NCBI GenBank assembly: GCA_003139615.1
Contig: PLJH01000027.1
Location: 64,267 to 128,266, forward strand
DNA from: Alphaproteobacteria bacterium
GTDB lineage: Bacteria; Pseudomonadota; Alphaproteobacteria; Micropepsales; Micropepsaceae
DNA length: 64,000 nucleotides
Reading direction: 5' to 3'
Positions 42,714 to 63,446 of this stretch are shown here, in pieces. Every line of letters begins with the position of its first letter. The stretch's first letter is position 1. A program made the position numbers and the translations under genes. The notes under the pieces are model-generated. The model had not been told where the DNA came from. It saw nothing but the letters and a program-made list of their open reading frames with translations, and made no database searches.

Positions 42714-42766
42714 CTAAGTCTTCTCCTTGCAATGTCGCATCGCGTGCGTTCAAAACCGATAGACGC

Positions 42767-43126
42767 TTAATTTGATTGTGCAGGAACTTTCGACAGAAAT
42801 TGAGGAGACAAAGCTTGGACGCACATTCTGTAACTTGCATTGTCGCCCGCCTGAGCCGTGCTCAACACACGTTGGACGCCGGACCACTCTTCTTTTGTAA
42901 AATTTAAATTACCGCTCACGCTCGCGAGCTTCAGAAGCTTGATCTGTATACCCGCCTCTCCGTGAACACCTCCGACTACGGACCAATGTTCACCTGCCGT
43001 AGCAGGCTGGGTGCAAACCTCTTTTACGTCCCGAACAACATCGGCCAAGGAATTTGCACTAGCGATGGTCGAAGTTGCTGCTAAGGCGGTTCCAACCACA
43101 GCTGCCGCTTTAAGTGCCAATTTCAT
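42767..43126 (-). CDS. Secreted hypothetical protein (paralogue)
   Basis: Signal peptide; VKEVCTQPATAGEHWSVVGGVHGE...NFTKEEWSGVQRVL. Confidence 0.6.
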   Translation of the reverse strand: MKLALKAAAVVGTALAATSTIASANSLADVVRDVKEVCTQPATAGEHWSVVGGVHGEAGIQIKLLKLASVSGNLNFTKEEWSGVQRVLSTAQAGDNASYRMCVQALSPQFLSKVPAQSN

Positions 43127-43542
43127 GAGCCCCTCCAATTGCAAATTCTCGACAAATCACGGGCATTTTATATCAACATTCTAGTGCTGACTAGCGGAAT
43201 ACAGCTGTATTCAGCCTCTGGTCTATTCTCGGCCCGGAAATAGAATATCGACATAGAACAGGGGAGCATTGCGGGATTCCTCTCGGAAAGGTCACACACC
43301 AACGCGTCGGATTTCCGCGCCACTTATCTATCAATGGCAATATGGAAGCTTCAGCATTGTCGGCTGTTGGCGATGTTCCGCTCGATCAGCATTCGGCGAG
43401 GCTAGGCGGTGGCCGGACTTGAAACAAAATCGGCCAAATTGTTTCAAGCGGGGCGGCCAGCAGAGTCAGGAAGTAGGCCAATAGCGACCGGCGCCAGTTC
43501 CGGTCGCTTTCCCCGCCTTGCAACCAGCCACGCAAGGGGGAA

Positions 43543-46050: not shown

Positions 46051-46062
46051 CGGCTCACGGCT

Positions 46063-46827
46063 ATGGCGACAATCCGGCTGCACATTCTTGCGAGCGTGGC
46101 GGGGGCGTTTCTCGCGCTATCGGGCTGCGATCAAAGCGGCAGTCCGTTCGGCGGCGGGGCGGACGAGCAAGCGGCTCTTGCCGATCCAAACTTCACCAAG
46201 CCGTTCATGCTTCATTTAGGCCAGGACACGTATGCGACCTCGTTGGCCGTCGCCTCGATGAACGGGGTTGACAATCGGCCAACCGACGGCGCGTTGCAGA
46301 GTGCCTCGAATTATCGCCCGTGCCACGTCACGACCGACCCTGAATTGTACTGGTACCTATTCGCGTCGGTTGACAGCTATCAATTTCAATCTCCCGTGCT
46401 CTCGAAGTGGCTAGTGGCGCGGCAACTCCTCGAATATCGAACGTATCGTATTCGCTACACGCATGTGAATTTTCCGGAGTATGGAACCGAGAGCATCGTC
46501 GTGTGCCCGGTCGTCTCGGAAGATGCGGCGCAGTACATGGCACCGGAGGATCGAGCGCGCGGCGTACACGGCGGGATCGTAGTGCCGTTCATGCACCGCA
46601 AGTTTGTGGAGTGGACGTATCGCAACCGATACGACGCCGACATGCCGGGAAGCGGTAAGGTCAAGATGTTCGCCGGCACCTACACCTATGAGATCGTGTC
46701 CGACTTCCCGGGTGCGATCCCCTCGTCACAAGGCGCCGCGACGGTGAAGCTGATGTTCAACCCCGATATCGGCCAGTGGCAGATGTTCAGCTGGCAGTAC
46801 CAAGACCCGCCGGTGTCCTTGCAGTAG
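46063..46827 (+). CDS. Putative lipoprotein
   Basis: Hydrophobic N-terminus with LSGC lipobox. Confidence 0.55.
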   Translation: MATIRLHILASVAGAFLALSGCDQSGSPFGGGADEQAALADPNFTKPFMLHLGQDTYATSLAVASMNGVDNRPTDGALQSASNYRPCHVTTDPELYWYLFASVDSYQFQSPVLSKWLVARQLLEYRTYRIRYTHVNFPEYGTESIVVCPVVSEDAAQYMAPEDRARGVHGGIVVPFMHRKFVEWTYRNRYDADMPGSGKVKMFAGTYTYEIVSDFPGAIPSSQGAATVKLMFNPDIGQWQMFSWQYQDPPVSLQ

Positions 46828-46833
46828 CGAGGG

Positions 46834-47280
46834 CTAACTGCGCTTGCGCTTCTTTGGCGCGCGATCCATGCGCCCCAGGCCGGTTTTCCTGGCGAGCATC
46901 GAGCGCGTCGCGGCGTAGTTGGGCGCCGTCATCGGATAGTCATGCGGCAAGCCCCACTTCGTCCGGTATTGCTCGGGCGAGAGGCTATAGCGCGACCGCA
47001 GATATCGCTTGAGCATCTTGAGCTTCTTGCCATCTTCAAGGCAGATCACGTAATCAGGCGTGATCGATTTCTTTATGGGAACGGCGGGCTTCTGCGTCAT
47101 GGGAGGAGCTTCGCCTCCCGACTGTGCGAGCCAAGCGAGCGTTGCGTGCACGTCCCTAACCAATCCCGATACTTCGCTCGCCGAGGCGCGATTATTGCCG
47201 ACATACGCTTGCACTATGATCGCTGCGTATTCGATCAGGTTCGTATTTGGCAAAACTGTTTGTTCGTTATCAAGCGCCAT
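46834..47280 (-). CDS. MucR/Ros family transcriptional regulator
   Basis: YVICLEDGKKLKMLKRYLRSRYSLSPEQYRTKWGLPHDYPMTAPNYAATRSMLARKTGLG. Confidence 0.93.
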   Translation of the reverse strand: MALDNEQTVLPNTNLIEYAAIIVQAYVGNNRASASEVSGLVRDVHATLAWLAQSGGEAPPMTQKPAVPIKKSITPDYVICLEDGKKLKMLKRYLRSRYSLSPEQYRTKWGLPHDYPMTAPNYAATRSMLARKTGLGRMDRAPKKRKRS

Positions 47281-47432
47281 TCATCTGCTCCGGGTGAAAG
47301 AAGCATATGAGAATACGTCTGCGCAGTTTGCAAATGGAGGACGCATGAGCAATTTTGAACACGTCTCGGACATCTGTTTGCAACTTGTGGTGTACTAATG
47401 GGACATAGCGACGTGTGTTGTCGTAAGGCGGA

Positions 47433-47595
47433 CTAAAATAATTCGGGCTGGGGCGAAGGCTTCTCGGATGGCGCTGGCTTCTTCTCCTGCTCGCGCATAT
47501 CCCAATCGCCTTCGACGGTTTGGAGCAGCGCCTTCACCTCGCTTTAGGGGCGCGCTCGTCTCACCAAGCCACGCCGCCCAATGCTCGGGCGGCAG
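47433..47595 (-). pseudogene. Decayed, frameshifted 3' remnant of a SRAP/YedK-like gene
   Basis: LPPEHWAAWLGETSAP in one frame and SEVKALLQTVEGDWDMREQEKKPAPSEKPSPQPELF* in the next. Confidence 0.5.
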
Positions 47596-47750
47596 AGTCG
47601 AGTCGAAAAAGAAATCCAGAGAGCCTCCGCAGCGCGGCTGCCCCTAATATATTGAATCAATTGACATATTCTGCGAAAACCTTCGGAAAAAATCGAACCC
47701 TGAAGGACATTGGGGTGCTCCCCGGCCCGCAATGCTTCGAACACAAGAAA

Positions 47751-47772
47751 GGCCCCCGCCGAAGCGGGGGCC
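47751..47772 (-). terminator. Hairpin terminator, minus-strand orientation
   Basis: GGCCCCCGC TTCG GCGGGGGCC followed by TTTCTT on minus strand. Confidence 0.65.
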
Positions 47773-48078
47773 ATATTCACTCGCCTAGGAGCGCTCCGAC
47801 CGTAGCCGTTGATCGGCTCTCGTGTCGGGGTGGTGCGCTTGGAGCCGGTGCTGCTTTGAACTTGGGCGATGTGGCATTCATCCCATGCAAGTACGCGGCG
47901 GTTGCTGTTATCACACGAAGTGCGCCGAGTGCCGGCAAGCACGGTTTTGCGACCGTGCGATCACTGACGAGGCAATGCCGTCGCTTCGCATAACGACAAG
48001 CGAACGACCTATCAGCGACATTCCGCGCCGGAACGGAAATCTCAGTGGTGAGGAATGAACAAGTGGGCTGTAAGTGAT

Positions 48079-49023
48079 CTACGCCGGGGTCGCTCGAAGT
48101 GGCGTGGCGGGAGCTGCTTCGAACCAGTGCAGCTTCTCGCCCGCAGTCGCAGCCAGGTATTCCATCGCTTCCTGCGCTTTGTGGGCGGCGGTGAAGATCG
48201 CACGCGGATCGTTGTTAAGGACTTCAAGCCACGTCGCGACGTATGCGGCGTGATCCTATCGTGGCTCATTTGCGATCCCGAACACGGCGCACATGAATGC
48301 GGCACCGAGTTCGGCAACAAGTTCCTCGAACGCATAGGCATGACTGCCGAAGCGATTGTTGAGGTCGCGGCCGATGCGATGCGAGGCACCGCTCCAGTGC
48401 GTGAGTTCGTGCAAAAGAAAAGAATGATAGCCTTCGGACGCTGTGCGGGTCTTCGTGTCATGGAACCATGACGGGCTTGGCATCTCGATTCGATCCAGAT
48501 CGATGCGGTACTGCGCCCGGGCGTACCCGTGATCGATACGAGCGCCGAGTGCTTCGACGAACGCGGTGATTTGTTCGTTGATCTCGACGGGCGATTGCCG
48601 GCAAGGCTCGGGCGGTTGCCAATTGTCGATCTGCGCCGCGTTGAAGACCCAATACGCGCGGCCTATCGATCGGGGCAGTTCGCCGGCTGCGATCTCCAGA
48701 TCGGTCTGCTCGATCCGCTTGTAGAAGACGATGATCGAGCCGTGCTCGCCGCGCCGGACCTGAGCGCCAAGCGATTGCCATTGCTTGTACGAGGCCCAAT
48801 GTCCGCTTTGATACTTTTTCGCGGACGCATCGAGCCAGAGCGAGAGGATGTTGACGCCGTGATACGGATTTTCCGTGACGGCGTTTGTCGGTATCGCGAA
48901 CGGCACATCGCCCGTATGCCACGGCATTTCATATTTGCCTTTGGCTTCCTGAATGCCGCGCGCGATTTTCGCCGTGATCGCGCCGTAGACGTTGAGCTGC
49001 TTGGAAGGAACTTCGCTTTGCAT
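48079..49023 (-). pseudogene. ArdC-like antirestriction protein interrupted by an in-frame amber codon at 48256-48258
   Basis: ORF from ATG 49023 ends GIANEPR*; same frame continues DHAAYVATWLEVLNNDPRAIFTAAHKAQEAMEYL... to TAG at 48079. Confidence 0.8.
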
Positions 49024-49096
49024 ATTTCTCTCCTGCGCATTGCAGGAGCCTCCGAAGGATTCAGAGGCTCCGAGGAGCGCGGGAGGCGGGAAGGGA

Positions 49097-49606
49097 CTAG
49101 AGCGAGCCCATTGCTCGGGCGAAATATGTGAGTGCGAGCGCGGCGGCGTCGAAGAGCGACTGTCGCGCGTCCTCGCTGTTCCAGCTCTTGCGCTTCTTCG
49201 GCAGGCGATGGGAGAGCGGGTCCAGATGCTTTGCGACGACCTCCGCGATCTCGTGACGTGTCGTCGCCCCGGAACCTGCGAAGGCCGACCTGACCGCAGT
49301 CCTGGGAAACACGACGGTGTCTGCGCCATGGAGGAGCGCGAGATGCGCCATCTCCCGGCAGAGTGCCTGGATGCGCTCCGTGCGGGGCTCGTGGCCTTCG
49401 AACTCTTCGAGCACGAAGACCGTAGGCTCATATCGCTTCAGCAATCGCTCAAAGCGGGCGATGAGGCGAGCATTCCGACCGGCCTTCGCACTTGCGATGC
49501 CCCAATCCAAGACTGAGAGAGGTGCTTCAAACAACACCCAGCCGAATCCGCGCGTTGTGGGGTGCGCCGCAAGCAGAAGACCCTTGTTGCGGGGACCCGC
49601 AGTCAT
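49097..49606 (-). CDS. RuvC-like (RNase H fold) resolvase/nuclease
   Basis: LAAHPTTRGFGWVLFE...VFVLEEFEG...NSEDARQSLFDAAALALTYF. Confidence 0.6.
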   Translation of the reverse strand: MTAGPRNKGLLLAAHPTTRGFGWVLFEAPLSVLDWGIASAKAGRNARLIARFERLLKRYEPTVFVLEEFEGHEPRTERIQALCREMAHLALLHGADTVVFPRTAVRSAFAGSGATTRHEIAEVVAKHLDPLSHRLPKKRKSWNSEDARQSLFDAAALALTYFARAMGSL

Positions 49607-49950
49607 ACCTCCGGGACGCCGATGGCGCGTTTCGCTATGTCGGATAAGAGTGCAAGTTTCTTCATTGAGGCTGGGTCAGTCTTGCCTCGTAGGCTCTCGT
49701 CGAGTTTGGCCGCCTGCCGGCCGATCTCATCCTGTATGTCTCTAACGGCTCCGGGGAAGAGTTCGGCGGCGGACTTTCCGAAGATGAACTCGCAGCCGAC
49801 CATGAACATGAGCGTCGGCGGGCGCTCGCCTTTCTCGCACTTGCGGACGTAATCGCCGCTAAGTCCAAGGAGCGAACCAAGCTCCTCTTGCGTGAGTGCC
49901 GACGATATGCGCGCGGTATGCAGATAGATGTCTAGTGCTGGTTGCTCCAT
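49603..49950 (-). CDS. XRE-family HTH regulator
   Basis: LTQEELGSLLGLSGDYVRKCEKGERPPTL; ATGA overlap with RuvC-like gene. Confidence 0.8.
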   Translation of the reverse strand: MEQPALDIYLHTARISSALTQEELGSLLGLSGDYVRKCEKGERPPTLMFMVGCEFIFGKSAAELFPGAVRDIQDEIGRQAAKLDESLRGKTDPASMKKLALLSDIAKRAIGVPEV

Positions 49951-50098
49951 GGACGAGAGCGATTGTCTCCCGCCAGAGGGCAGCAAAAAAGAAGGCACAA
50001 TCGGACTGTTAGTCCGGTCGGAATCGGTGGCTATTTCAATATGCCGTCAATCTAGCACGAGCCGATAAAATCTAGCTAGAATGCCGATCAAGCGCGGC

Positions 50099-50179
50099 TC
50101 AAACTGCGTTGAGGCCGTATCGAAGCGCAAGCGCCTCCAGCTTCGCACGCTCGGTCGCCGGCACGACGAATACGCCGCC
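50099..50179 (-). pseudogene. Vestigial duplicate of the AAA+ ATPase C-terminus
   Basis: Encodes GGVFVVPATERAKLEALALRYGLNAV*, cf. GGVFVVPATERAKLQALSHRYAIRDV* of the gene at 50793-52157. Confidence 0.75.
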
Positions 50180-50365
50180 GGAAATAATAATTAAACGCCC
50201 AGTGATCTTGCTGGGCGTCGAATACTGACGGTGCTCGCAACTTGCGATTTCTTGCACTATCTTCATAATGGAGGGTCTACGCCGATTCGTTTTCTGGCGC
50301 AGAAAAAGGCTTCCCTAGACGCTTTGGCTGGAACCCATCGCGTCAGGCTTACTGGGAGGACGCCA

Positions 50366-50746
50366 ATGAAGGATAGCTTCTCGCCCTCGGTTCAGCTTTT
50401 CGGGAACCCGAACCGCATTCGACTGAAGAATGCGGAAGCCGGAAAGAACTCATTTCTCGGTGATGATCAGGGTTTCGGTGCGAACTCTCATCCGCAGCTT
50501 TTTGATTTTTCTGAGCCTTCCTTTCGGCCCCGAAAGTCCCTGTTCAAAACCCCACGGAAAATCATAACGCCTCCAACTTCGAGCGCGCAAGACGATTTGT
50601 TCTCGATTTTGCCTACCCGCGATCTGAAAAGCTCAGAGGACTTCCGAACAATTGTGTCGCCAGATATTCGGTGCGTGCACGTGTGGCGCGTGGCTGACGA
50701 GGACTTGCTCTGGTGCTGCGTTCTCTGCGGGAACTTTCACGCGTGA
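50366..50746 (+). CDS. Hypothetical protein
   Basis: ORF with internal ATG MKDSFSPSVQ. Confidence 0.4.
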   Translation: MKDSFSPSVQLFGNPNRIRLKNAEAGKNSFLGDDQGFGANSHPQLFDFSEPSFRPRKSLFKTPRKIITPPTSSAQDDLFSILPTRDLKSSEDFRTIVSPDIRCVHVWRVADEDLLWCCVLCGNFHA

Positions 50747-50792
50747 CCGACCACCCCTTGTAGTATAACCCGCGGCGGGGCCCATAAGATGT

Positions 50793-52157
50793 TCAGACAT
50801 CCCTGATGGCATAGCGATGAGAAAGCGCCTGCAGCTTCGCGCGCTCTGTCGCCGGCACAACGAACACGCCGCCCGTCTTCTTCGTTTCGAGATTCAAACG
50901 GCCCCGAAGTACCGCGCCGATGCCGCGGTATGACATCGGTCCGAACCGGTCGGCGTTGTCGGCATTGAAGCGCTTCGTAACTAGGGCGACCGGTGCGGGA
51001 CCTCCAGCGTGCTCAGCAAAGGTTGCTATGACGGCGGCCAGGACACAGGCGTCCGGCGCCTCACGGCGGGTGCGGGCAAGATCGGCACTTTTGTCCTTGA
51101 GCCAGCTTTGTATCTCGGCACGGAGGGCTGGATCTTCGACCAGGCTGAGGAGCGCGAGCGCGGATTGATTGGCGCGGGACTCGACACCTTCGATGATTGC
51201 AGCGGGGTCGGTCTTGATGTGGAAGAACTCCGAGAACCGAAAATGCAGGAGGCGGTTTCGAAGAGCAAGAGCTTCGTCCTTCATACTGGCGGGCAAATGT
51301 ATGGGAATGTCCGGCCGGAGGGAGCGGGAATAGGTCTCTTCGGTGAAGAAGCGGCTTTCGAGCGCAATGTCCTGGAACGGCTCGCGGGTTGCGATGAGCT
51401 TCGGTCCATAGACCTTGAAGGCATATGGGTTGAACTCCTTGTATCGATTCTGGATCGTGCGCAGCACCGGCATGCCTTTGGCCGTGCCGTTGTTGAGTAT
51501 CTTGACCAAGTCCGCTTTCGCGTCGCTATAGGGCAAGTCGGCTTCGTCAAGAACGAGCGTGCCGCCGAAGCTGTCTAGTGTGTGGAAGATCGGGGAGACG
51601 GTCGAGGCGCCCGACGCGAAGAAGGGCCGATAGCAGAGCGAGCCGATAGTGTGGAGCGCCCGGGTCTTGCCGGTGCCGTAGTCGCCGCGAAGGCGAAGGT
51701 ATGGGAGTTCGCCGAAGGCGTCGTGCACCCACGAGAGAAGCACATAGTGCACGGCGATTTGCTCGAACAGCGGTGAGAGATCGACGTACCGATGCAGGAA
51801 CGCCCGAATGTCGGCAACCAGTTCATCCTTGAGCCCATATTCGAGCGGCATCGAGGGGAGGAGCACACAGCCGCTTGTTATGAGGTTGTTGGCGGGTGAA
51901 TACGGGACGAGGAGTTCACCCGTCCCAATGCTCACTTCCTGCTCGATGTTCCAAAGACCATCGAAGCGCGAAACGGCAAGCGCGGTCGTGTGCTTGGCAG
52001 CGTTGTATACGAGCTCCACCAACGTGTCTGAGGATACGCGCGAGACGGTCGGGATGCGGTTTGAATCTGGCATACGGTGCATTGTCGTATGCACGAGAGA
52101 GTTTTGCGCGACGGCACTTTCGGACAGCCGAATTACCGAGTCGCTGAGACTGGACAC
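50793..52157 (-). CDS. AAA+/P-loop ATPase, possibly replication-related
   Basis: Walker A LRGDYGTGKTRAL; Walker B TLVLDEADL. Confidence 0.65.
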   Translation of the reverse strand: MSSLSDSVIRLSESAVAQNSLVHTTMHRMPDSNRIPTVSRVSSDTLVELVYNAAKHTTALAVSRFDGLWNIEQEVSIGTGELLVPYSPANNLITSGCVLLPSMPLEYGLKDELVADIRAFLHRYVDLSPLFEQIAVHYVLLSWVHDAFGELPYLRLRGDYGTGKTRALHTIGSLCYRPFFASGASTVSPIFHTLDSFGGTLVLDEADLPYSDAKADLVKILNNGTAKGMPVLRTIQNRYKEFNPYAFKVYGPKLIATREPFQDIALESRFFTEETYSRSLRPDIPIHLPASMKDEALALRNRLLHFRFSEFFHIKTDPAAIIEGVESRANQSALALLSLVEDPALRAEIQSWLKDKSADLARTRREAPDACVLAAVIATFAEHAGGPAPVALVTKRFNADNADRFGPMSYRGIGAVLRGRLNLETKKTGGVFVVPATERAKLQALSHRYAIRDV

Positions 52158-52229
52158 GGGGGCAGTGGCGACCTGACCAGTCTCCCTAAGTTCGCTGTTG
52201 ATCTCGGGGACAAATGCTACAATCCAAAT

Positions 52230-52499
52230 ATGCCGGGTGAAGGTCCAAACGCCGATTTCGCACGCGATATTCTACTTCACGAATATGAGCGGATGTGTAC
52301 GGAGATACGTGCACTCGAAGGAAACAACGAGAAGGCAATAGCCTTTGGCCTGTCAATCATCACCGCTGCTCTTACGGTTGGCATTGCGCAGCACGTCCAT
52401 CAGATATTCTTTGTAGTTCCGATCGCCATCGTAGGCGTCTTTTTCTATCCCAAACCCCGATTTGTAGATAGCCACCGTGTCGCTGCCAATATCCACTGA
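52230..52499 (+). CDS. Small two-TM membrane protein
   Basis: LLHEYERMCTEIRALEGNNEKAIAFGLSIITAALTVGIAQHVHQIFFVVPIAIVGVFFY. Confidence 0.5.
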   Translation: MPGEGPNADFARDILLHEYERMCTEIRALEGNNEKAIAFGLSIITAALTVGIAQHVHQIFFVVPIAIVGVFFYPKPRFVDSHRVAANIH

Positions 52500-52631
52500 A
52501 ATTGACTGAAGGCCCACGCTTCATCGCAAGTGCTGCGACAGCGCGGGTCTGCGCGCCATCGTCGATGCGACGGTTGTCTTCTCTCAAAGCCGCTTATACC
52601 ATGGGCGGTATGTGGCGATGGTCGGCTCTGG

Positions 52632-53213
52632 TTAGGGCTCGCTGACGCCGGACGCCGCCATTGGAATCCAAACCATGATGCGGGCCGATGGATCTTTACA
52701 CCGAAGAAACATGACGCTTCGAAAGGTTCCTTCGAGAAGAAGTGGCCCGCGATGCTCCAAGTCGATGAAATCGGGCAGCACGATGATGGGTTCTATCTGC
52801 TGAATCTCTTGGTTCGAAGGAATCTCCTTCGCGGCAGCGCGAGGGTGCGAACGTTCGAACGGACCTCGCATTGAAACAAGATCAGCAAGGGGTATCCATT
52901 GGAGTCCTGGAACACAGATGGTCGCCAGAAGTTGTTCTCGTGTCCATGCAACGCAGATAAAACTCTCATGGGGGGCCAGTGCAGGCACAAGCCCGCATCG
53001 CCCTTTGTGCCTGTTGAGCGCTTCTATCAACTCGTTGCGATCGTTTTCCGACAGCTCGCCGAACGGCACGTTCCCCCGAGCCCGAGCAAAGAGACCGTCT
53101 GACACGAGGCCCGTGTAACTGTTGGCAAAACGGCTTGATGTAAGCTCCGCGTAGGCCCATCTCGCTTTGAGGGTGTCACGAGAGATTTTCTGACCGAGCT
53201 CTATTCGATTCAT
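52632..53213 (-). CDS. Hypothetical protein
   Basis: 193 aa ORF, no recognised motif. Confidence 0.45.
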   Translation of the reverse strand: MNRIELGQKISRDTLKARWAYAELTSSRFANSYTGLVSDGLFARARGNVPFGELSENDRNELIEALNRHKGRCGLVPALAPHESFICVAWTREQLLATICVPGLQWIPLADLVSMRGPFERSHPRAAAKEIPSNQEIQQIEPIIVLPDFIDLEHRGPLLLEGTFRSVMFLRCKDPSARIMVWIPMAASGVSEP

Positions 53214-53408
53214 AACCTACTCTACCAAGCCATTCCTAAGCTCTCCAGAGGTTCAGTGACGTAAGGACTTCGGGGACGTTGCAGACGACATATCTGAGCA
53301 TCGGCGACCCGGTGGTACGGCGCGGCTTTGCTTGACTGAAGTCGCGCCTAACCGAGCCGCCGTTGCTGATCGGGAGACGCCGGGACGATGGGGACGTTAT
53401 AACGTGTA

Positions 53409-54968
53409 CTAAGTTCTCCCATTCTCTGCTATATTCCTCAGTATGTTGAGTATGCTCCTTATTCGAACATTATCTCGATGACGAGCACATTCCTGGTCAG
53501 GTTCGAACTTTGTTCGAAGGTTGTCTCGACTAGGAGCACATTCCTCTAAATTTTCTAATTCCAATATCTCTCGATAAGGAGTCCGCAGCGTAAACGTTGA
53601 AGTTTCTCCGTGTACGGAGAAGTTCGAACATATGATATCGAGCAATTCGCGCTTTTCGTCATCAAGCAGCAATTCGTAGCGCAGAAGCTCACGATTGTTG
53701 CGTTCGAACTCTTCAAACAGTTCTTGGAGAGGCGACAGCCTGTCGGTGCGTGCCAGTTCTGCCAGGATGCCTTGGCGCTCCATGAGCAGCTTCTCCTTGC
53801 GCGCATTGAATGTGGCGCTATCGATGGTTTCGTCGACCAATAGGTCGGTGAGGCGCGTGAGGCGGTCGTCGAGATGGTGGAGTCGAAGGGTGAGGGCCGC
53901 TTTTAGGCGCTCCGTATTGCCTTCAAGGTCGGTACATTCATCCCGTACAACGTCCCTTAAGTCCTCAAGTCCCTGTTCGTCGATGCGTATGCGCTCAATG
54001 TGATCCAGTGCGACGCCTTCGAGCGCGTCGCTCTTCCACGAGACGCCTTGGCAATGCTCGCCATGGCAGCGGTAGTAGAGGCGGGACTTTTGGATTTCGC
54101 CGGTGAGATGGCGGCGCTCGCAATTATCGCATTTCACCATCTGGCGCAGCAGGTATCGATGCTTTTTCGCTTTGGGCACCGTCTTGCCGCGCAGGGTGGC
54201 TTGCACTCGATCAAACAGGGCTTTGGATATGAGCGGCTCATGCACGCCGGGGAACGTCTCGCCGGTCGTGCTGATGCGGATCACGCCCATATAGAAGGGA
54301 TTGTTGAGGACGGCAGTGAGTGTGTTGTCATAGAGGGGCTTGCCGGCGGCAGTGCGCAATCCCTTCTGCCACATCTCATGCCGCAATTCTTCGAAACCGA
54401 CGGTGCTCGTGGCATATCGTTCGAACAGATGGCGGATGAGCGGCCCTTTGACCGGGTCAATGACTTTCAGCTTGCCCTTGCCGCAGTTGAGATAGCCGAT
54501 TGGAGCCGCCCACGGATACAGGCCCTGCTTCAAGCGGCCATACATACCCTTCTTCACTTCCTCGCGTAGGTTGCGGATGTAGTCGGCAGCGACGACAGCC
54601 TGGATGTCAGCGGAGAGACGGCCGCCCCGCGAGAGTAGGTCGAAATTATCGCTCACGAAGCGAACATCGATGCCGCGGTCTATGAGGTCGCCGAGATCAG
54701 CCCAATCCCGAAGATTACGCGCGCTGCGGTCGATCTTGTGGATGATAAGGCCGTCAGCTTTTCCTGATCTGAGTTTCGAAAGCATCTCGGAAAACTGCCG
54801 ACGCCCTTGTTTCGCGGCCGTCTCCACCTCTTCGAACCAACCGGTGATCGTGAGTGCGTTGCGAGCGGCATACGCTTCGATGGCGCTCTTCTGTTCCTGA
54901 AGGGATGATCCGCGCTCGCCCTGCTTTACGGTTGAAACGCGGATGTATGCGAAATATGACTTGGTCAT
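53409..54968 (-). CDS. Second serine recombinase (resolvase N-terminus plus Zn-ribbon and C-terminal domain)
   Basis: YFAYIRVSTVKQGERGSSLQEQKSAIEAYAARN; IHKIDRSARNLRDWADL; CDNCERRHLTGEIQKSRLYYRCHGEHCQG. Confidence 0.92.
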   Translation of the reverse strand: MTKSYFAYIRVSTVKQGERGSSLQEQKSAIEAYAARNALTITGWFEEVETAAKQGRRQFSEMLSKLRSGKADGLIIHKIDRSARNLRDWADLGDLIDRGIDVRFVSDNFDLLSRGGRLSADIQAVVAADYIRNLREEVKKGMYGRLKQGLYPWAAPIGYLNCGKGKLKVIDPVKGPLIRHLFERYATSTVGFEELRHEMWQKGLRTAAGKPLYDNTLTAVLNNPFYMGVIRISTTGETFPGVHEPLISKALFDRVQATLRGKTVPKAKKHRYLLRQMVKCDNCERRHLTGEIQKSRLYYRCHGEHCQGVSWKSDALEGVALDHIERIRIDEQGLEDLRDVVRDECTDLEGNTERLKAALTLRLHHLDDRLTRLTDLLVDETIDSATFNARKEKLLMERQGILAELARTDRLSPLQELFEEFERNNRELLRYELLLDDEKRELLDIICSNFSVHGETSTFTLRTPYREILELENLEECAPSRDNLRTKFEPDQECARHRDNVRIRSILNILRNIAENGRT

Positions 54969-55177
54969 GGAGTTGTGGCGGGTAGCTCCGATTTTAGCCC
55001 GGAATCTGTAACAGCGCGAATCGCAGTATGTGAATTGTCAACCGCGAGCCTTTCATGGACGCGCAGAAGCAGTCGCGCGAGGCGTTTGAGACTTTCGCGT
55101 GCGAGCTCACGCTCCTCGTGCGAGGCATTCGGCATGTACTTATTGAGGATGATGTCGCCGGGACGATGCGTACGCAT
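54965..55177 (-). CDS. Small protein translationally coupled to the second recombinase
   Basis: ATGA overlap; MRTHRPGDIILNKYMPNASHEERELARESLKRLARLLLRVHERLA. Confidence 0.7.
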   Translation of the reverse strand: MRTHRPGDIILNKYMPNASHEERELARESLKRLARLLLRVHERLAVDNSHTAIRAVTDSGLKSELPATTP

Positions 55178-55326
55178 CGTTTAAGTCTCCAGAAATTGTA
55201 AGAGGCTGGTAGGCGTCACTTCGGGTCGGTACGTCTCGTTAGACCGCCTTGCGATGGTACAGATTGATGTTCAAATCAAATGACGCAATGACCGGACTGA
55301 GCTCCGCGCTGTGAATCAGCATCAAA

Positions 55327-56673
55327 GTGACCGCGTCATCGCCCCCAACGTCCCGACCTCCAGGCGCTACCGCTGTCCGCTATTGCCTTCTATTCGAGGA
55401 GGCATCGGCGTCCGAAGATTTGCCGATGATGCCGCAGGAAATTTCCTATTTCGCCCGAACCAACTTCCGCAACAGCGGTAAGCTCGTCGGCATCAAGCAG
55501 TCCGACCGCCTGTCGCATGTCTACGTCATCGGCAAGACAGGCGTCGGAAAGTCCACGCTCCTTGAAACTCTCGCCCTGCAAGACCTGAGCGCGGGTCGCG
55601 GATTCGCGTTCATAGACCCCCATGGAGATGCGGTCGAACGCGTCTTTGCGGCCGTTCCGGCTGAAGAGAAGGAACCGGTAAGCTATCTGAATGCGCCAGA
55701 TGGCGCCCAACCATTCGGATACAATCCTCTCCGGCGCGTGCGCGACGACAAGATACCGCTTGCCGTATCGGGTCTCATAGAAACGCTCAAGAAGCTCTGG
55801 CCCGATGCTTGGGGCGTGCGTATGGAGCATGTCCTCCGTAACTCACTGTACGCGCTCCTAGAGCGGGACGACGCTACGCTTCCCTCGATCCTTCGGCTCT
55901 ACGCCGACGAGAAATGGCGGAAGGATGTTACCAGAGGCATTCGCAACGAAACCGTCCGCCGCTTTTGGCGGCACGAATTCGAGCAGTACCACTTCCGCCA
56001 GAAAGCGGATGCCGTCGCGCCTATCCAGAACAAGCTCGGTGCGCTTCTGTCCGACCCGACGCTGTTTCGCATCCTAGTTGAGCCAAAACGCCCTATTCGC
56101 TTTCGGTCGCTCATGGACGAGGGGAGGGTGCTGCTCGTCAACCTGTCCAAGGGCCAGCTCGGCGAAGACAGCTCAGCGCTCCTCGGTGGCTTCATCGCCT
56201 CGACCATCGGTTTGGCCGCGTTCAGTCGCGCCGATAGCCAATCCAATACCCGCCGCCCCTTCTTCCTGTACATGGACGAATTCCAGTCCTTCACGACCCT
56301 CATGCTCGCCAACATGATGAGTGAGCTTAGGAAGTACGGCATCGGCCTTACGCTCGCGCATCAATACTTCCACCAGCTCGATCCGGACATCCGGCACGCG
56401 GTGCTGGGGAATGCGGGAACGATGATTTCATTTCGAGTGGGACCGGAGGATGCGTCGCTATTGGCGAAGGAGTTTCAGCCGACGTTTGAAGTTGAAGACC
56501 TGCTCAGTCTCCCGAACCACGATATCTACCTCAAGTTGATGGTCGACGGGACGCCGAGCAAAGCGTTCAGCGCCGAGACGCTAACCTCAGCAGAAATCGA
56601 AAGGACTGTCCGCGCAGCAGCTCGACCTACTGCCAAGAAACTATGTCGTTACGCTCACTCAGAATGGTTCTGA
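55327..56673 (+). CDS. VirD4/TraG/HerA-like ATPase 1
   Basis: VIGKTGVGKSTLLE; FAFIDPHGDAVE; FFLYMDEFQSF; GIGLTLAHQYFHQLD. Confidence 0.85.
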   Translation: MTASSPPTSRPPGATAVRYCLLFEEASASEDLPMMPQEISYFARTNFRNSGKLVGIKQSDRLSHVYVIGKTGVGKSTLLETLALQDLSAGRGFAFIDPHGDAVERVFAAVPAEEKEPVSYLNAPDGAQPFGYNPLRRVRDDKIPLAVSGLIETLKKLWPDAWGVRMEHVLRNSLYALLERDDATLPSILRLYADEKWRKDVTRGIRNETVRRFWRHEFEQYHFRQKADAVAPIQNKLGALLSDPTLFRILVEPKRPIRFRSLMDEGRVLLVNLSKGQLGEDSSALLGGFIASTIGLAAFSRADSQSNTRRPFFLYMDEFQSFTTLMLANMMSELRKYGIGLTLAHQYFHQLDPDIRHAVLGNAGTMISFRVGPEDASLLAKEFQPTFEVEDLLSLPNHDIYLKLMVDGTPSKAFSAETLTSAEIERTVRAAARPTAKKLCRYAHSEWF

Positions 56674-56780
56674 ATGGATGATGCTCCCGCGTGCGCCCGG
56701 ACTTGGGGATGTTCTCCCCATATCCTGCTTATCTCCCGTTTCGACCAAGCGTTGCCGCAACAATACCTGGGCGCAGAGTG

Positions 56781-57614
56781 CTACGAATGATTGAACCAAA
56801 CCGCTCCCCATGTCGTAAAGACTGTCTCAAACAATCCCATTATCAAGCCTACTATAAACCCGCGTCGTATTCCGATCACGATGGGTTGCCGTTTGTCTTC
56901 GGTGGAGTAACGGCCCGATGGGATGCGCCGCGTAATAAGTCTGCTCACATAGGCTTCAACACCGCCCTTCGTCATGCCCACGATGCCGAAAAGCAAAACG
57001 TGCAGGACGACGCCGACGACAACGGCGATGATGATAACCATGGCCAGCACAACGAAAAACAGAAATAGAGTGCCCCAAAACCCCAAACCACCGCTTCCGC
57101 CGAAACCGCCTGCGCCGCCACCGATAAATGCAACAAGTGGCATATTCGGATCAATCATAAGCGTTTGAGCCGACGACGCGACATCGGGCGGAAGGCTGAG
57201 GATGCCCGCTTCTCCGACGATCATTCCCACAATGAGCCCAATGAGTGCCCCGATCAGAGATTGTCCCCAAAACGCTGCACTGAAATTTGAGTGTTCCAAA
57301 TTCGAGTCAAACAGTCCGGACAGGAACGAGTTACGCACCTCGCCGGCTTGTCCTCGCCACGCCGCCACGAGACCAATCACAAGTCCCGCAAAGAGACCAA
57401 AGAAAGCGCCTTCGGCGATATTCGCGGCAAGTCCGGCGACACCCGACACGCCAGCCGCTGACACGGCAATTGAGAAGGCAGCAAAGAGCAATTGCGCGAT
57501 GCAAACCAAAGCCCAAATACCGAGTGCCGCGACGCCGAGCCCAAGAATGCCCACAATAGGATTGCCGTCAGATGTACCATTGGGACCTGAAATTCTTGGT
57601 CCTTGAATATTCAT
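56781..57614 (-). CDS. Gly/Ala-rich multi-TM membrane protein
   Basis: Multiple hydrophobic segments; 277 aa. Confidence 0.55.
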   Translation of the reverse strand: MNIQGPRISGPNGTSDGNPIVGILGLGVAALGIWALVCIAQLLFAAFSIAVSAAGVSGVAGLAANIAEGAFFGLFAGLVIGLVAAWRGQAGEVRNSFLSGLFDSNLEHSNFSAAFWGQSLIGALIGLIVGMIVGEAGILSLPPDVASSAQTLMIDPNMPLVAFIGGGAGGFGGSGGLGFWGTLFLFFVVLAMVIIIAVVVGVVLHVLLFGIVGMTKGGVEAYVSRLITRRIPSGRYSTEDKRQPIVIGIRRGFIVGLIMGLFETVFTTWGAVWFNHS

Positions 57615-57758
57615 AGCAGCCCCCTAAACTAAGTTCACTGGTGGACAGAAATAACAGTTCTACTTTTTCCTTGCAATTATTCCAGCGACTCAGGTTATCT
57701 CTTTCCCAAGTGTCGCCCATGCGTCCGATGGGTTTGATAGGGCTGCGGGGAATTCTCC

Positions 57759-58148
57759 ATGAAATTGGTGCTTCGGCGCGAACAGCGCCCGAATTTGCTT
57801 GGCCAGATCGTATTCAGTCTCGATGTTCGGGGCGATCTCTCAGGAGATGAACAAGACGCGATCAGGACGTATTCGCTCGGCGATAGACTGCTCTATGAGA
57901 AGTACACCCTTATCGCAAAGGGCTGGGGCGTCATCGGTTGGATTACCGCCGTCCTCGTTCGCGTTGCGCATTATGCGGTCAATACGACGATCAAGGGGCG
58001 AGACCTGATTGAGGGGAAGCGGGTCCAGTGCAGCAGCATTGCCGAAATGGTCGTTGTCGAGACGATCATTAAGGAAGAAGCGGCGACGTTCGGGATGCTC
58101 CTCAAAGCAGCCATGACGTTTCGCGGCGAAGAAGCGATCCCGATCTAG
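57759..58148 (+). CDS. Hypothetical protein coupled to ATPase 2
   Basis: Ends 3 bp before the GTG start of the next ORF. Confidence 0.5.
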   Translation: MKLVLRREQRPNLLGQIVFSLDVRGDLSGDEQDAIRTYSLGDRLLYEKYTLIAKGWGVIGWITAVLVRVAHYAVNTTIKGRDLIEGKRVQCSSIAEMVVVETIIKEEAATFGMLLKAAMTFRGEEAIPI

Positions 58149-58151
58149 TCG

Positions 58152-60899
58152 GTGTTCAAGACCACGAACTTCGGCCAATTTCTGCTTGGCGGCACCAAGC
58201 AGCGCGAGCTACGCGAAACCGAGGCCGCCTGGGACGAGACCCAATCGCTCTGGCGCCGGTCGCCGGCTGCCGAAGGCATCCCGGAATTGGCCGTTGCCCT
58301 AACTGCCGATCTTCGTGAACGGATTGATCGGGTTCCCGCGTTCCCCCTGCAACTATCGATCGCGTACGCTCTCGAACAATTGCTAGAGGCGGAAAGCATC
58401 TGCCCCATCGAGCCCATATGGCGCGCGATCGAATACGACATCAACGCGGCTATGGAATTCCGCGAGATGCTTGTGCGCCGAAGGCGCTGGTCCGTCGATT
58501 TCGACCGACTGTTCGATACCTTCCGCTCGGCGGCTTTCGCGAGCCTCGTTCCTGTCATCGACGCGTTACCCGAGTGCTGCTTCGGGGAGTGGGAGGGCGA
58601 GCGGCCAGACACCTTCGAGGTTACGCTTGTCGATCTTCTTGACGATCCCGCTCGCACCGTCGAACGACTATTCATGCTGCCCTATGACGACGATGCGTTT
58701 CGCTACGAGGTGTTCGCGCGCCTGCGAGAAGTGTGCGCGACCAACCTCCTGATCGCGTCCGGATTTCGGGGAGACGACGATCCGCGCCGGCACGAGGGTA
58801 AACTCGTTCTCCCGAGCGCGCATAAGGCCACGACTGGCAGCGAACTGGCCGAGCTGTATCTGCGTGGTTCGCCCCTCAAGTCGCTGCTCGATATTCCTGT
58901 GCCGTTCCATATCCCCGCCGAGGCGCGGTTCGAGCATTGCCACATCGTGGGCGGTACGGGGCATGGCAAGACACAGCTCATGCAGAAGTTGATCCATGCC
59001 GATCTTCTGGCGAGCCGAGAGGACGGGCGGTCGGTTATCGTCATCGACAGCCAGGGCGATCTCATCAACAAGCTCGTCCGGCTGGAGCTGTTCGCTCCCG
59101 GCGCCAAAGACAGCCTCGCGGATAGGCTCATTCTCATCGATCCGGCGGATGTGGAGTTTCCTGCCGCTCTCAATCTCTTCGACGCGCATCTGGACCGCGT
59201 CCGCTCCTATTCTGCCGCGGACAAGGAACGGGTGCTGAATGGCGTTATCGAACTCTATGAGCTGTTCTTTGGCGCGTTCCTCGGGGCCGAACTGACGCAG
59301 AAGCAGGGCGTAATCTTCAAGTACCTCGCCCGCCTCATGCTCGCCATTCCCGGCGCCACGATACACACGCTCATGCGGATCATGGAGGACGGAAAACCAT
59401 TCAAGCCGTACATGGATCAACTCGACGGCTCGGCCCGCTACTTCTTCGAGACCGAGTTTTTTCATCCATCGTTCGCCGCGACTAAGAAGCAGGTGTTGCG
59501 GCGTCTGTGGGGAGTACTAGCAACGCCTGCCTTCGAGCGCATGTTCACGCAGAAAGAGAACAAGCTCGACATCTTCGAGGCGATGAACGAGGGCAAGATC
59601 ATCCTCGTATCGACAGCCAAGGACTTGCTAAAACGCGAAGGCTCCCAACTACTCGGCCGCTTCTTCATCGCGATGATCTCCCAAGCTGCACTTGAGCGTT
59701 CAACTCTTCCCGACCGGCTACGCAGACCGTGTTTCGTGTATGTGGACGAGGCGCAGGAGTATTTTGACGACTCGGTCGAGACGATCCTGAACCAGGCGCG
59801 CAAGTATCGCGTCGGGCTTACACTCGCGCATCAAACGCTCGATCAGCTATCCCCTCGCCTCCGATCTGCGATTCTCTCGAACACGTCGATGAAGTGTGCA
59901 GGCGGCGTCTCGGCCAAGGATGCCCGAGCGCTTGCGGACGAACTTCGGACAACATCCGATTTCGTAGAGGGTATGAAGCGCAAAGGGCCGCGAAGCGAGT
60001 TCGCGGTGTGGGTGAAGCAGCTCACGGGCCACGCGATACGGCTTTCGGTCCCGCTCGGCTTCTTGGAGAAGCAGCCGACGCTTGACGACGAAGACTATGT
60101 TGCGCTCGTGGCACTCAATCGCTGCCGGTATTGCGGGACACTCGCCGATATTCCAGAGCATGCCGCGCCTGATGGGCCGCCCGATGCACCAACACCAGAG
60201 GCACCCCCGAGTCCCCCAACGCCCAGCGCAACGAGTGCCGAACCGCCCGCAGCATCCGAAGCTCCGGGCACGCCTGTCCGGCCCGGCCAGCCCGCCGATC
60301 TCAGAAAGCCAGTACACCCAACCGCACAGACGGATGCACCACATTTCGCGAGGCCTCCAGTCGAGGAAAGAGAGCTAGGCAAGGGCGGCAAGCAACATCG
60401 CTATTTGCAATCGCTCATCAAGGAGCTTGCGGATCAGCAGGGCCTCAAAGCGACCATCGAGGCACCGCTTGCCAACGGTAACGGGCAAGTGGACGTGCTC
60501 ATCGAGCGCGACGGCGTGCTAGCCGCAATTGAAGTGTCCGTTACTACCCCCGTCGAACATGAACGGGAAAACCTGCGGAAATGCCTCGCGTGCGCATATC
60601 CGCGGATCGCAGTCGTCCTTGCCAAGTCGAGAACCGTCCAATCCAACTACCGCGCTGCACTTAGAGAAGGATTGAACGAACCCGATCTCGCGCGCGTGTC
60701 GTTCCTAACTCCCGAAGAACTCCCGAGCTTCATAGCATCGCTCGCGCCTCCTCCCGAACCCACGGAACGGATTGTCCGCGGATACAAAGTGAAAGCCTCG
60801 CGCGTACCAACTTCACCAGAAGATGCCAAAAGCCGACAAGACACGGTCGCTCGGCTGATTGCCAAATCGCTCATCAGCCAAAAGGACAAGGATCGCTGA
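58152..60899 (+). CDS. VirD4/HerA-like ATPase 2 with C-terminal nuclease-fold-like domain
   Basis: IVGGTGHGKTQLMQ; VIVIDSQGDLI; CFVYVDEAQEYF; VGLTLAHQTLDQLS; C-terminal NGQVDVLIERDGVLAAIEVS. Confidence 0.85.
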   Translation: MFKTTNFGQFLLGGTKQRELRETEAAWDETQSLWRRSPAAEGIPELAVALTADLRERIDRVPAFPLQLSIAYALEQLLEAESICPIEPIWRAIEYDINAAMEFREMLVRRRRWSVDFDRLFDTFRSAAFASLVPVIDALPECCFGEWEGERPDTFEVTLVDLLDDPARTVERLFMLPYDDDAFRYEVFARLREVCATNLLIASGFRGDDDPRRHEGKLVLPSAHKATTGSELAELYLRGSPLKSLLDIPVPFHIPAEARFEHCHIVGGTGHGKTQLMQKLIHADLLASREDGRSVIVIDSQGDLINKLVRLELFAPGAKDSLADRLILIDPADVEFPAALNLFDAHLDRVRSYSAADKERVLNGVIELYELFFGAFLGAELTQKQGVIFKYLARLMLAIPGATIHTLMRIMEDGKPFKPYMDQLDGSARYFFETEFFHPSFAATKKQVLRRLWGVLATPAFERMFTQKENKLDIFEAMNEGKIILVSTAKDLLKREGSQLLGRFFIAMISQAALERSTLPDRLRRPCFVYVDEAQEYFDDSVETILNQARKYRVGLTLAHQTLDQLSPRLRSAILSNTSMKCAGGVSAKDARALADELRTTSDFVEGMKRKGPRSEFAVWVKQLTGHAIRLSVPLGFLEKQPTLDDEDYVALVALNRCRYCGTLADIPEHAAPDGPPDAPTPEAPPSPPTPSATSAEPPAASEAPGTPVRPGQPADLRKPVHPTAQTDAPHFARPPVEERELGKGGKQHRYLQSLIKELADQQGLKATIEAPLANGNGQVDVLIERDGVLAAIEVSVTTPVEHERENLRKCLACAYPRIAVVLAKSRTVQSNYRAALREGLNEPDLARVSFLTPEELPSFIASLAPPPEPTERIVRGYKVKASRVPTSPEDAKSRQDTVARLIAKSLISQKDKDR

Positions 60900-60944
60900 G
60901 CCCTTTTCCTCGAAACGGCCGCCGGCCGCTGCTATAAGCGATCA

Positions 60945-61703
60945 ATGGATTTGGGGCAGCGACTTTTTGGCATGACTGCGGGTGCCCGTCGCTATTGGTA
61001 CGGCGATGGTGAACGAACGCCTTGGGTCAGGCGTGCGCTCGCAGTCGTCTTCGCGCTCCTCGTCCCTGCCCCGATCATTTTAATTCTCATATTCCGCTTC
61101 GTGCCGATACCCGGAACGCCGCAAATGCTGTTCTCACTCGTAACCGGACACGGCGCGCATTACGCGTGGCGCGGTAGCGACAGCATTTCACCGGCCCTCG
61201 GTAGGGCAGTTATCAGTTCGGAAGATCAGCGGTTCTGCTCCCATCATGGCTTCGATTGGAAGAACATCGATGAAGCCGTGCGCCAGCACGAGCGCCACCC
61301 GCGCAAGCAGCTGCGAGGGGCGAGCACGATCAGCCAGCAGACCGCACGAAGTTTGTTCCTGTTGCCGGTGCGAAGCTGGATACGAAAAGGTATGGAGGCC
61401 TATTTAACGGTCCTGCTCGAAGCCCTCTGGCCTAAGGAGCGTATTTTGACCGTCTACCTAAACGTCGTTGATTGGGGCAACGGTAACTTTGGAGCCGAGG
61501 CGGCAGCGCAGGCCTATTTCCATGAGCCCGCGGCGGCGATCTCGCGCACGCAGGCCGCTCGCCTTGCCGCCGTATTGCCCGACCCCAGCCGGTGGCAGGC
61601 GGCGCGCCCGGGGCCATACGTGGCCGCGCGAACACATGCCTTGGGCACGCAAATGCAAGACGTTGCCGCCGGTGGCTTGGATTGGTGTGTGAGGCGCAAG
61701 TAG
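60945..61703 (+). CDS. mtgA: Complete island-encoded monofunctional peptidoglycan glycosyltransferase
   Basis: Co-linear with the disrupted chromosomal copy: SEDQRFCSHHGFDW, GASTISQQTARSLFLLPVRSW, AYLNVVDWGNGNFGAEAAAQAYF. Confidence 0.95.
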   Translation: MDLGQRLFGMTAGARRYWYGDGERTPWVRRALAVVFALLVPAPIILILIFRFVPIPGTPQMLFSLVTGHGAHYAWRGSDSISPALGRAVISSEDQRFCSHHGFDWKNIDEAVRQHERHPRKQLRGASTISQQTARSLFLLPVRSWIRKGMEAYLTVLLEALWPKERILTVYLNVVDWGNGNFGAEAAAQAYFHEPAAAISRTQAARLAAVLPDPSRWQAARPGPYVAARTHALGTQMQDVAAGGLDWCVRRK

Positions 61704-61811
61704 GGCTGGCGGAGAATTTAAGCACCATTATGCAGTAGTCGCTTCGGTCCCGGTTTGGAGCGTGGCGGTCGTGATGCCAGTCTAGCTAGGTAGCGCCAAC
61801 CAGAGGCACCC

Positions 61812-62036
61812 ATGACTTGCGACCTGTTCACCCAAGTAGAAGCACTGATACGAGACCCCGCTATCCGATCCAAACCGAGTTACGTTTTGAGCTACGGAGC
61901 GTTGCTGGCGTCGGAGGCCGAATGTGCCCGATCTCAGGCAGATCGGATGCGGGCGAAAGAATTGATTGTGGAATTGAAAACGGCAGCCGAGCCTCCGCGC
62001 GCCCATCCCGGCTCGACCGTGTGGGATGGCTTCTAA
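61812..62036 (+). CDS. Hypothetical short protein
   Basis: 74 aa ORF. Confidence 0.35.
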   Translation: MTCDLFTQVEALIRDPAIRSKPSYVLSYGALLASEAECARSQADRMRAKELIVELKTAAEPPRAHPGSTVWDGF

Positions 62037-62104
62037 GACGCTGCCAACCGCTTGAAGCACATCCGGCGTGCTAATCTTCACGCCCTCGTGCCCGATTCGG
62101 ACGC

Positions 62105-62710
62105 ATGGCTACGGAGATTGAAATGGCAGCGGCGGCTGGACAAACGCTGAGAAGTTACTATGAGGCCCAAGTACGGGAATGGCTGGACCTGAAAATGGTG
62201 ACCGGTCGCTATTCGTCGATATTGGTCGGCCAGCTTGCCCAGCACATCGAACAGCGCACGGTGAACGTCTTCGCAATCTATGACGAGGTTGAAGCCTTAG
62301 AGAGGCCAGACATCCCCCGTGCAACTCGTACGAAGCCAGCCGCTCCGCTGAAGGGTGCGCTCCTTCGGGGACTTTGGCATAAGCATCACTTCCAAGCCGC
62401 TTACCTCTTACAAAACCTTCGCAATCAATGGCCCGAAGCGAAAGTGGCTGTGCTCGTTGAGACCGTAGCAGCCGATGCAACCATGTCGGATGATGTTAAG
62501 GCCGGGCGCATCGCACACGAAATCGTACTGGGCGGATATCAGGCACAAGCTCAAGCCAGAAAAATCACAGGCGAATGGATCATCTACGCAAAGCACAGTG
62601 ACAGGAACTATTACCTTACTCTGGGAGACCATGGAGAGGACGCCGCTATCGCTAGTCGGGCTCTGGCATGCAACGCCGAATTCCCAGAGCTTCAAGGAAC
62701 GTGGGGATGA
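62105..62710 (+). CDS. Hypothetical protein
   Basis: 201 aa ORF; LLRGLWHKHHFQAAYLLQNL. Confidence 0.55.
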   Translation: MATEIEMAAAAGQTLRSYYEAQVREWLDLKMVTGRYSSILVGQLAQHIEQRTVNVFAIYDEVEALERPDIPRATRTKPAAPLKGALLRGLWHKHHFQAAYLLQNLRNQWPEAKVAVLVETVAADATMSDDVKAGRIAHEIVLGGYQAQAQARKITGEWIIYAKHSDRNYYLTLGDHGEDAAIASRALACNAEFPELQGTWG

Positions 62711-62764
62711 GTAGCTGCCACGACGAGTGCCAGCGCGTTGCGCCGCGTGATAGGTATAGTTCGC

Positions 62765-63235
62765 CTAACGCTGTAACGATGCGCGGTCAGCGAGATCGCG
62801 CAATCGACTTAGAATGCGTCCCCTGGGGTATCGCCGCCCAGTTTCCCAAGCGCGCACCGTCAGCTTGTAGACGCCCAGGAGCTTTCCCAATTCCTCCGCT
62901 GTAAGGCCCCTTCGACGCCTCACCGTAGAGACCATCTCAGGGACGGTTGCGGGGGTTGCGGCGACTGGATCGACGCCGAGGTAGGCGATGACGGCCGGCC
63001 AGTTGTGGCTACCTGGACAGGTCCCGTTGGTCTCCCATGCCTTGTACGTCTTGAGGTCCACACCGATGGCGGCAGCAGCATCGCTCTGCCGTAACTTCCT
63101 GACCTGCCGCGCCCTCAGTAGGTGCTCAGCCAGTCCTACGGGCGCAGTATGCGTTTCGATATGCCTTGAGACACAAAGCCTTAGGTCGGTGACAGGGAAA
63201 AAGGCAACGCAACTCGTCGATTGGGGCCACGGCAA
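62765..63235 (-). CDS. Tandem XRE-like HTH ORF; predicted C-terminal extension of the island integrase in the circular form
   Basis: Two HTH units (KLRQSDAAAAIGVDLKTYKAWETNG; LTAEELGKLLGVYKLTVRAWETGRRYP); only in-frame ATG/GTG/TTG upstream of the first HTH is a TTG in chromosomal mtgA. Confidence 0.7.
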   Translation of the reverse strand: MPWPQSTSCVAFFPVTDLRLCVSRHIETHTAPVGLAEHLLRARQVRKLRQSDAAAAIGVDLKTYKAWETNGTCPGSHNWPAVIAYLGVDPVAATPATVPEMVSTVRRRRGLTAEELGKLLGVYKLTVRAWETGRRYPRGRILSRLRDLADRASLQR

Positions 63236-63446
63236 TTTCGGCGCGGAGGCGGCGTCGCAGGCCTATTTCCACAAATCCGCGTCGCAACTGACGCGCGCCG
63301 AAGCCGCGCGGCTCGCGGCCGTGCTGCCCGATCCGGAGAAATGGCATGCCGACAGGCCCGGCCCCTATGTCGCCGGGCGGACCGGCACGATCGTTTCGCG
63401 GGCCGGCGAAGTCACCCGCGACGATCTCGATGCCTGCGTGCGTTAG
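63213..63446 (+). pseudogene. mtgA: Chromosomal mtgA C-terminal part, separated by the island
   Basis: LVDWGHGNFGAEAASQAYFHKSASQLTRAEAARLAAVLPDPEKWHADRPGPYVAGRT...CVR*. Confidence 0.93.

What the first reader, a model, noticed from the sequence alone, without database searches (positions are those of the whole stretch)
60945..61703. Island carries a full replacement copy of the gene it destroys
The ORF at 60945-61703 is a complete MtgA-type glycosyltransferase, co-linear with and clearly diverged from the interrupted host gene (e.g. AYLTVLLEALWPKERILTVYLNVVDWGNGNFGAEAAAQAYFHEP versus AYLTVLLEALWPKKRILTAYLNLVD|WGHGNFGAEAASQAYFHKS). Supplying a whole diverged orthologue goes beyond the usual regeneration of a gene's 3' end and suggests a host-fitness-compensating or addictive strategy.
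Basis: partly seen in the sequence, partly recalled or inferred. Interest (0 to 1): 0.85.

Follow-up and report, generated by a model that had tools for sequence, protein, structure and literature searches.

The report
Island brings spare of disrupted gene
A 28-kb mobile DNA island has landed inside a bacterium's cell-wall gene mtgA and carries its own complete, clearly different version of that gene, which probably makes good the damage; none of 12 related islands checked does this for its own target gene.

Summary
Window 60945-61703 encodes an intact 252-aa MtgA. The native mtgA is split into 34406-34932 and 63213-63446 by a 28,291-bp serine-integrase island. Both ends share an 11-bp core, the restored attP is a perfect 12+12 inverted repeat, and joining the flanks gives one uninterrupted 249-aa MtgA.

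The split gene is the native copy: it lies beside gltB, as in 21 of 30 relatives. The island copy is 68% identical to it, falls within the same genus-level clade, keeps 72 of 73 conserved residues, has dN/dS of about 0.1, and has the codon usage of the island's backbone genes. It looks like a maintained functional gene, not a 3'-end patch.

Among 96 genomes of the order, only this one has more than one MtgA. Twelve related islands (9 in comM, 2 in a glycosyltransferase-like gene, 1 unassigned) carry no detectable copy of their target.

Best explanation: whole-gene functional replacement of the disrupted target (about 0.55). Main rival: coincidental cargo (about 0.3). 'Addiction' is not supported: precise excision would restore the host gene, and some near-complete relatives lack mtgA. 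Expression and activity are untested.

In passing: integration also splits an integrase-Xre fusion ORF.

The parts
60945..61703 (+). Complete island-borne mtgA (252 aa), co-directional with the host gene
   Evidence: 72 of 73 near-invariant positions kept
34406..34932 (+). 5' part of the native mtgA up to and including the att core; as it stands it reads on into the island for a 186-aa product
   Evidence: lies 3.8 kb from gltB as in relatives
63213..63446 (+). 3' part of the native mtgA, from the att core to the stop codon
34922..34932 (.). attL core CTCGTCGATTG; central dinucleotide GT
63213..63223 (.). attR core CTCGTCGATTG
34930..34941 (-). attP half-site AAGGCAACGCAA at the left end
63201..63212 (+). 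attP half-site AAGGCAACGCAA at the right end
34922..63223 (.). The island: 28,291 bp from core to core
34912..36501 (-). Large serine integrase abutting attL; its last codons after integration are host mtgA sequence read in antisense
   Evidence: Resolvase, Recombinase and weak Zn_ribbon_recom Pfam matches
58152..60899 (+). TraD/HerA-like ATPase directly upstream of the island mtgA (45-bp gap)
   Evidence: orthologues in all 12 related islands
62765..63235 (-). Double helix-turn-helix (Xre-type) gene at the right end
   Evidence: related genes near the right end of G063, G044, G023, G491, G487, G497, G494
53409..54968 (-). Second large serine recombinase of the island backbone
55327..56673 (+). 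TrwB-like ATPase of the island backbone
26094..30650 (+). gltB, synteny anchor next to native mtgA

Best explanation
A 28.3-kb serine-integrase island, related to islands that mostly sit in comM, uses mtgA as its attB. Integration at a core inside the gene splits the native mtgA and separates its last ~75 residues (shown). The island carries a complete mtgA of the same genus-level lineage in the variable slot between traD and xre, co-directional with the host gene (shown). This copy is conserved and has the island's codon usage (shown). Most likely it is expressed from the island, with traD or from its own promoter, and supplies the monofunctional peptidoglycan glycosyltransferase activity that integration abolishes, so that integration is nearly neutral for the host (inferred). 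This would be gene restoration by a whole separate orthologue instead of the usual replacement of one gene end.
For: Intact MtgA above the family cut-off; 1 of 73 near-invariant positions changed, conservatively, and dN/dS about 0.12; the catalytic-glutamate motifs of the GT51 family (SSEDQRF and RKGMEAYLTVLLE) align with the solved PBP1A domain. Native copy provably split, with a clean empty site, at the conserved gltB locus. Only genome of 96 in the order with more than one MtgA. Codon usage like the island backbone: 0.068 against 0.066 for traD, native mtgA -0.103. mtgA is rare on mobile DNA: no close relative in viral contigs and 37 of 72,556 plasmid records, all below 60% identity, several of chromosome size.
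Against: No expression or activity data. No sigma-70-type promoter match near the gene. The need may be small: 8 of 60 near-complete relatives have no MtgA match and six other GT51 matches are in the genome. One instance only; 12 related islands have no target copy, and no second island of this family in mtgA was found.
Confidence: 0.55

Rival explanations
1. Coincidental cargo: the variable slot between traD and xre picked up an mtgA in an earlier host for unrelated reasons, and its match to the target gene is chance.
For: The slot holds unrelated, varied genes in related islands; related islands carry no target copies; only one instance is known. Rough odds: about 22 other genes against about 4,500 genes gives 0.5% for this island and about 6% over 13 islands, and a genome scan looks at many islands.
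Against: mtgA is rarely mobile; the gene is conserved and island-like in codon usage, so it has been kept.
Confidence: 0.3
2. Protected rescue allele: the island copy is diverged at the att site so that the integrase cannot enter it, and each integration swaps the host allele for the island's, much like a homing element that carries a recoded target.
For: The island copy has 7 differences in the 32 bp around the crossover, although the central GT is kept.
Against: Ordinary orthologues of similar divergence also show 7 or more differences, so no special recoding is needed; integrase tolerance is unknown.
Confidence: 0.08
3. Addiction: the cell becomes dependent on the island because the island holds the only working mtgA.
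For: While integrated, the island copy is the only intact MtgA.
Against: Precise excision restores the native gene; MtgA is missing from several near-complete relatives.
Confidence: 0.04
4. Assembly error: the apparent insertion or duplicate is a misjoin in a draft genome.
For: The genome is a draft in 142 contigs; reads were not available.
Against: Both junctions lie inside one contig and give a perfect attP and an intact reading frame; gltB synteny is normal.
Confidence: 0.03

Closest known systems
Target-gene-restoring genomic islands, e.g. dusA islands and prophages (PMC4482086); [quoted passage not shown]
   Same: Site-specific insertion inside a conserved protein gene, with the island supplying sequence that keeps the gene product.
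   Different: There the island replaces one end of the gene and the rest stays native. Here neither junction restores the gene, and a separate, complete, diverged orthologue sits 1.5 kb inside the island.
[quoted passage not shown]
   Same: The closest relatives of this island's integrase mostly sit in comM and share its backbone genes.
   Different: This member is in mtgA and carries a copy of its target; the comM members carry none.
Serine-recombinase integrative and mobilizable elements that disrupt dispensable genes (PMC5704250)
   Same: Serine integrase, short direct repeats, insertion in a conserved gene, coupling-protein-like ATPases.
   Different: No replacement of the disrupted gene is described there; no relaxase or mating apparatus was recognised among the island ORFs scanned here.

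Membership tests
MtgA (monofunctional GT51 glycosyltransferase) | Equivalog profile above its curated cut-off | tested here: met
   TIGR02070, 248.9 bits against 182.65
MtgA (monofunctional GT51 glycosyltransferase) | Both catalytic-glutamate motifs of GT51 present | tested here: met
   SSEDQRF and RKGMEAYLTVLLE align with PBP1A 2oqo; which residues are catalytic is from general knowledge
MtgA (monofunctional GT51 glycosyltransferase) | Glycosyltransferase activity | not testable with these tools
   Needs an in vitro lipid II assay
Serine-integrase island | Large serine recombinase with Resolvase and Recombinase domains next to an att site | tested here: met
   abuts attL
Serine-integrase island | Short shared core, inverted-repeat attP, intact empty site on joining the flanks | tested here: met
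Serine-integrase island | Excision as a circle | not testable with these tools
   Needs PCR across the circle junction
Target-restoring island (gene-end replacement) | Junction with the host rebuilds a full-length reading frame of the target | tested here: not met
   5' part ends 11 codons into the island; 3' part is joined to unrelated island sequence
Target-restoring island (gene-end replacement) | The cell keeps a functional product of the target after integration | tested here: inconclusive
   Intact conserved island copy present; activity not tested
Addiction module | Loss of the element harms the cell | tested here: inconclusive
   Precise excision is predicted to restore native mtgA, which argues against it; no fitness test

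The most novel reading that the evidence does not exclude
Mobile islands can evolve to bring their own target: a conserved chromosomal gene is the landing site while a whole, integrase-resistant orthologue travels as cargo, so that an otherwise costly site becomes free to use and each integration swaps the host's allele for the island's.
Probability: 0.15. Interest if true: 0.75.

Novelty: new variant of a known kind. Interest (0 to 1): 0.5.

Why it matters
Islands are thought to tolerate protein-coding sites by choosing dispensable genes or by rebuilding one gene end. A whole diverged orthologue as cargo would be a third route: it would widen the set of usable sites and would replace a chromosomal allele by horizontal transfer in one step. 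It is directly testable by deletion and complementation, and by a survey of islands with mapped att sites.

Tried and rejected
Addiction: rejected as the main reading, because precise excision restores the gene. Family-wide strategy: rejected, because 12 related islands lack target copies by the same search that detects the window's copy. Recent duplication of the host gene: the tree puts the island copy away from the host copy (host pairs with G040 at 90/95, the island copy branches earlier at 96/91), but an AU test does not exclude a sister relation (p 0.197), so this is unlikely, not ruled out. Special recoding of the att site: not needed. A second island of this family in mtgA: none among 395 class genomes or viral contigs by an exact degenerate junction pattern. 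Viral contigs gave no MtgA relative; phage and plasmid database hits are below 60% identity and several lie in chromosome-sized or unannotated records. Structure prediction of the single sequence was uninformative (pLDDT 38.7). An early synteny test printed nothing, probably because tblastx was missing, and was replaced. The automated att search located the att sites of the window only, not of the related islands. Literature searches for a whole-gene precedent found none, in a library of open-licence papers only.

Full report
WHAT IS THERE. The ORF at 60945-61703 is a complete 252-aa MtgA. The window also holds two pieces of another mtgA, at 34406-34932 and 63213-63446. An 11-bp core, CTCGTCGATTG, sits at 34922 and 63213. 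Joining the flanks at this core gives an uninterrupted 249-aa MtgA. Joining the island ends gives AAGGCAACGCAA-CTCGTCGA-TTGCGTTGCCTT, a perfect inverted repeat with a central GT, as expected of a serine-integrase attP. The same automated search on 12 related islands found nothing better than 3 mismatches, so the match is not a product of the method. The island is 28,291 bp, and its integrase (34912-36501, minus strand) abuts attL.

WHICH COPY IS NATIVE. In 21 of 30 relatives compared, mtgA lies within 0.1-6.3 kb of gltB (in the other 9 the two are on different contigs); in the window the split gene lies 3.8 kb from gltB. G040 has the highest-scoring gltB match, and the split mtgA groups with G040 in the tree (90/95). 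The split gene is therefore the native copy. It has no changes at 73 near-invariant positions, so the insertion is recent or the fragments have not yet decayed.

THE ISLAND COPY. It is 68% identical to the native protein and lies inside the same genus-level clade as an early branch (96/91). The best match outside the order in a 395-genome sample of the class is 56%. An AU test does not formally exclude a sister relation to the host gene (p 0.197). It departs from consensus at 1 of 73 near-invariant positions (L to I), and dN/dS is about 0.12 (dS is near saturation, so this is rough). Its synonymous codon usage matches the island backbone (0.068, against traD 0.066 and int 0.058) and not the host (native mtgA -0.103). 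So it does not look like a pseudogene, and it probably was not picked up recently from this host.

HOW UNUSUAL. Of 96 genomes of the order, 81 have an MtgA at E up to 1e-40 and only this one has more than one. Eighty loci with related integrases show no MtgA in their fetched flanks. For 12 related islands the element and its flanks were fetched. They share the integrase, the TraD-like ATPase and most of the second serine recombinase, second ATPase, ArdC-like and small-ORF genes. Nine are in comM at the site ...RFQLVAAMNPC or its equivalent (in G023 only the right end shows this), G063 and G044 are in a glycosyltransferase-like gene, and G502 is unassigned; these target names rest on reading the sequence motifs, not on a profile search. 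None carries a detectable copy of its target, by a test that does find the window's copy. For G496, and possibly others, the right end is cut by the contig or the fetched stretch. The slot between traD and the right end, where mtgA sits in the window, holds unrelated genes in the others. comM as a favourite target of large serine recombinases is known (PMC10083194).

MECHANISM. Shown: integration at a core inside mtgA, separation of the C-terminal ~75 residues from the host protein, and an intact conserved orthologue in the island, in the same direction as the host gene and 45 bp after traD. Inferred: it is expressed and restores MtgA activity. A consensus scan found no sigma-70-type promoter nearby, so expression would depend on the traD transcript or on another kind of promoter. 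The need for restoration may be modest: 8 of 60 near-complete relatives have no MtgA match, and the genome has six other GT51 matches.

RIVALS. Coincidence is the serious one: about 22 other genes in a genome of about 4,500 gives roughly 0.5% for this island and about 6% over 13 islands, before allowing for how many islands a genome scan inspects. Addiction is contradicted by the restoration of the native gene on precise excision. A protected rescue allele is possible (7 of 32 differences at the att site), but ordinary orthologues reach the same number.

COMPARISON. Restoration of a target by replacing one gene end is documented (dusA islands, PMC4482086; general statement in PMC12884075). In the papers found here no case of a separate whole orthologue carried as cargo was described, but the library holds only open-licence papers and the search was limited. 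It is best called a new variant of a known kind: target compensation by a whole xenologous gene, with compensation itself unproven.

A SECOND OBSERVATION. In the excised circle the integrase ORF would run in frame through attP into the Xre ORF, giving one 675-aa protein. Single ORFs in L023, L029 and L049 align collinearly with this predicted fusion across the junction at about 50% identity, so the joined form exists in nature. Integration therefore splits an integrase-Xre fusion gene and leaves the catalytic part nearly intact. Artificial fusion of a serine integrase to its directionality factor is known to control reaction direction (title and abstract of PMC5737554), so a role in direction control is an obvious hypothesis, untested here.

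Noticed in passing
34912-36501(-) with 62765-63235(-); L023 9968-11911, L029 9935-11782, L049 9878-11941: In the excised circle the integrase and the Xre gene form one in-frame 675-aa ORF with attP inside it; integration splits it. Three distant relatives have the joined ORF, collinear across the junction at about 50% identity. It may control recombination direction.
   Followed up: partly
G023, G063, G044, G487, G489, G491, G494, G496, G497, G500, G502, G504 (loci L147-L159, L164-L183): A widespread family of serine-integrase islands with a shared backbone (integrase, TraD-like ATPase, and in most a second serine recombinase, a TrwB-like ATPase, ArdC-like and Xre genes), mostly in comM, with varied cargo between traD and the right end.
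   Followed up: partly
34406-34966: The truncated host mtgA still encodes a 186-aa protein that keeps the N-terminal membrane segment and the glutamate motifs but ends 11 residues into the island; it could be inactive or interfering.
   Followed up: no
43543-46050: Island ORF of 835 aa with a TPS secretion domain and a weak GLUG-repeat match, probably a secreted adhesin-like protein.
   Followed up: no
36631-38852: Island cargo of a WbqC-like protein, a methyltransferase and an alpha/beta hydrolase in a row, possibly a surface-polysaccharide or small-molecule modification set.
   Followed up: no
L154 (G042): G042 has a related integrase (61%) but no MtgA match at E up to 1e-40; no mtgA fragment was recognised beside its integrase locus L061, so the two facts are probably unrelated.
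   Followed up: partly
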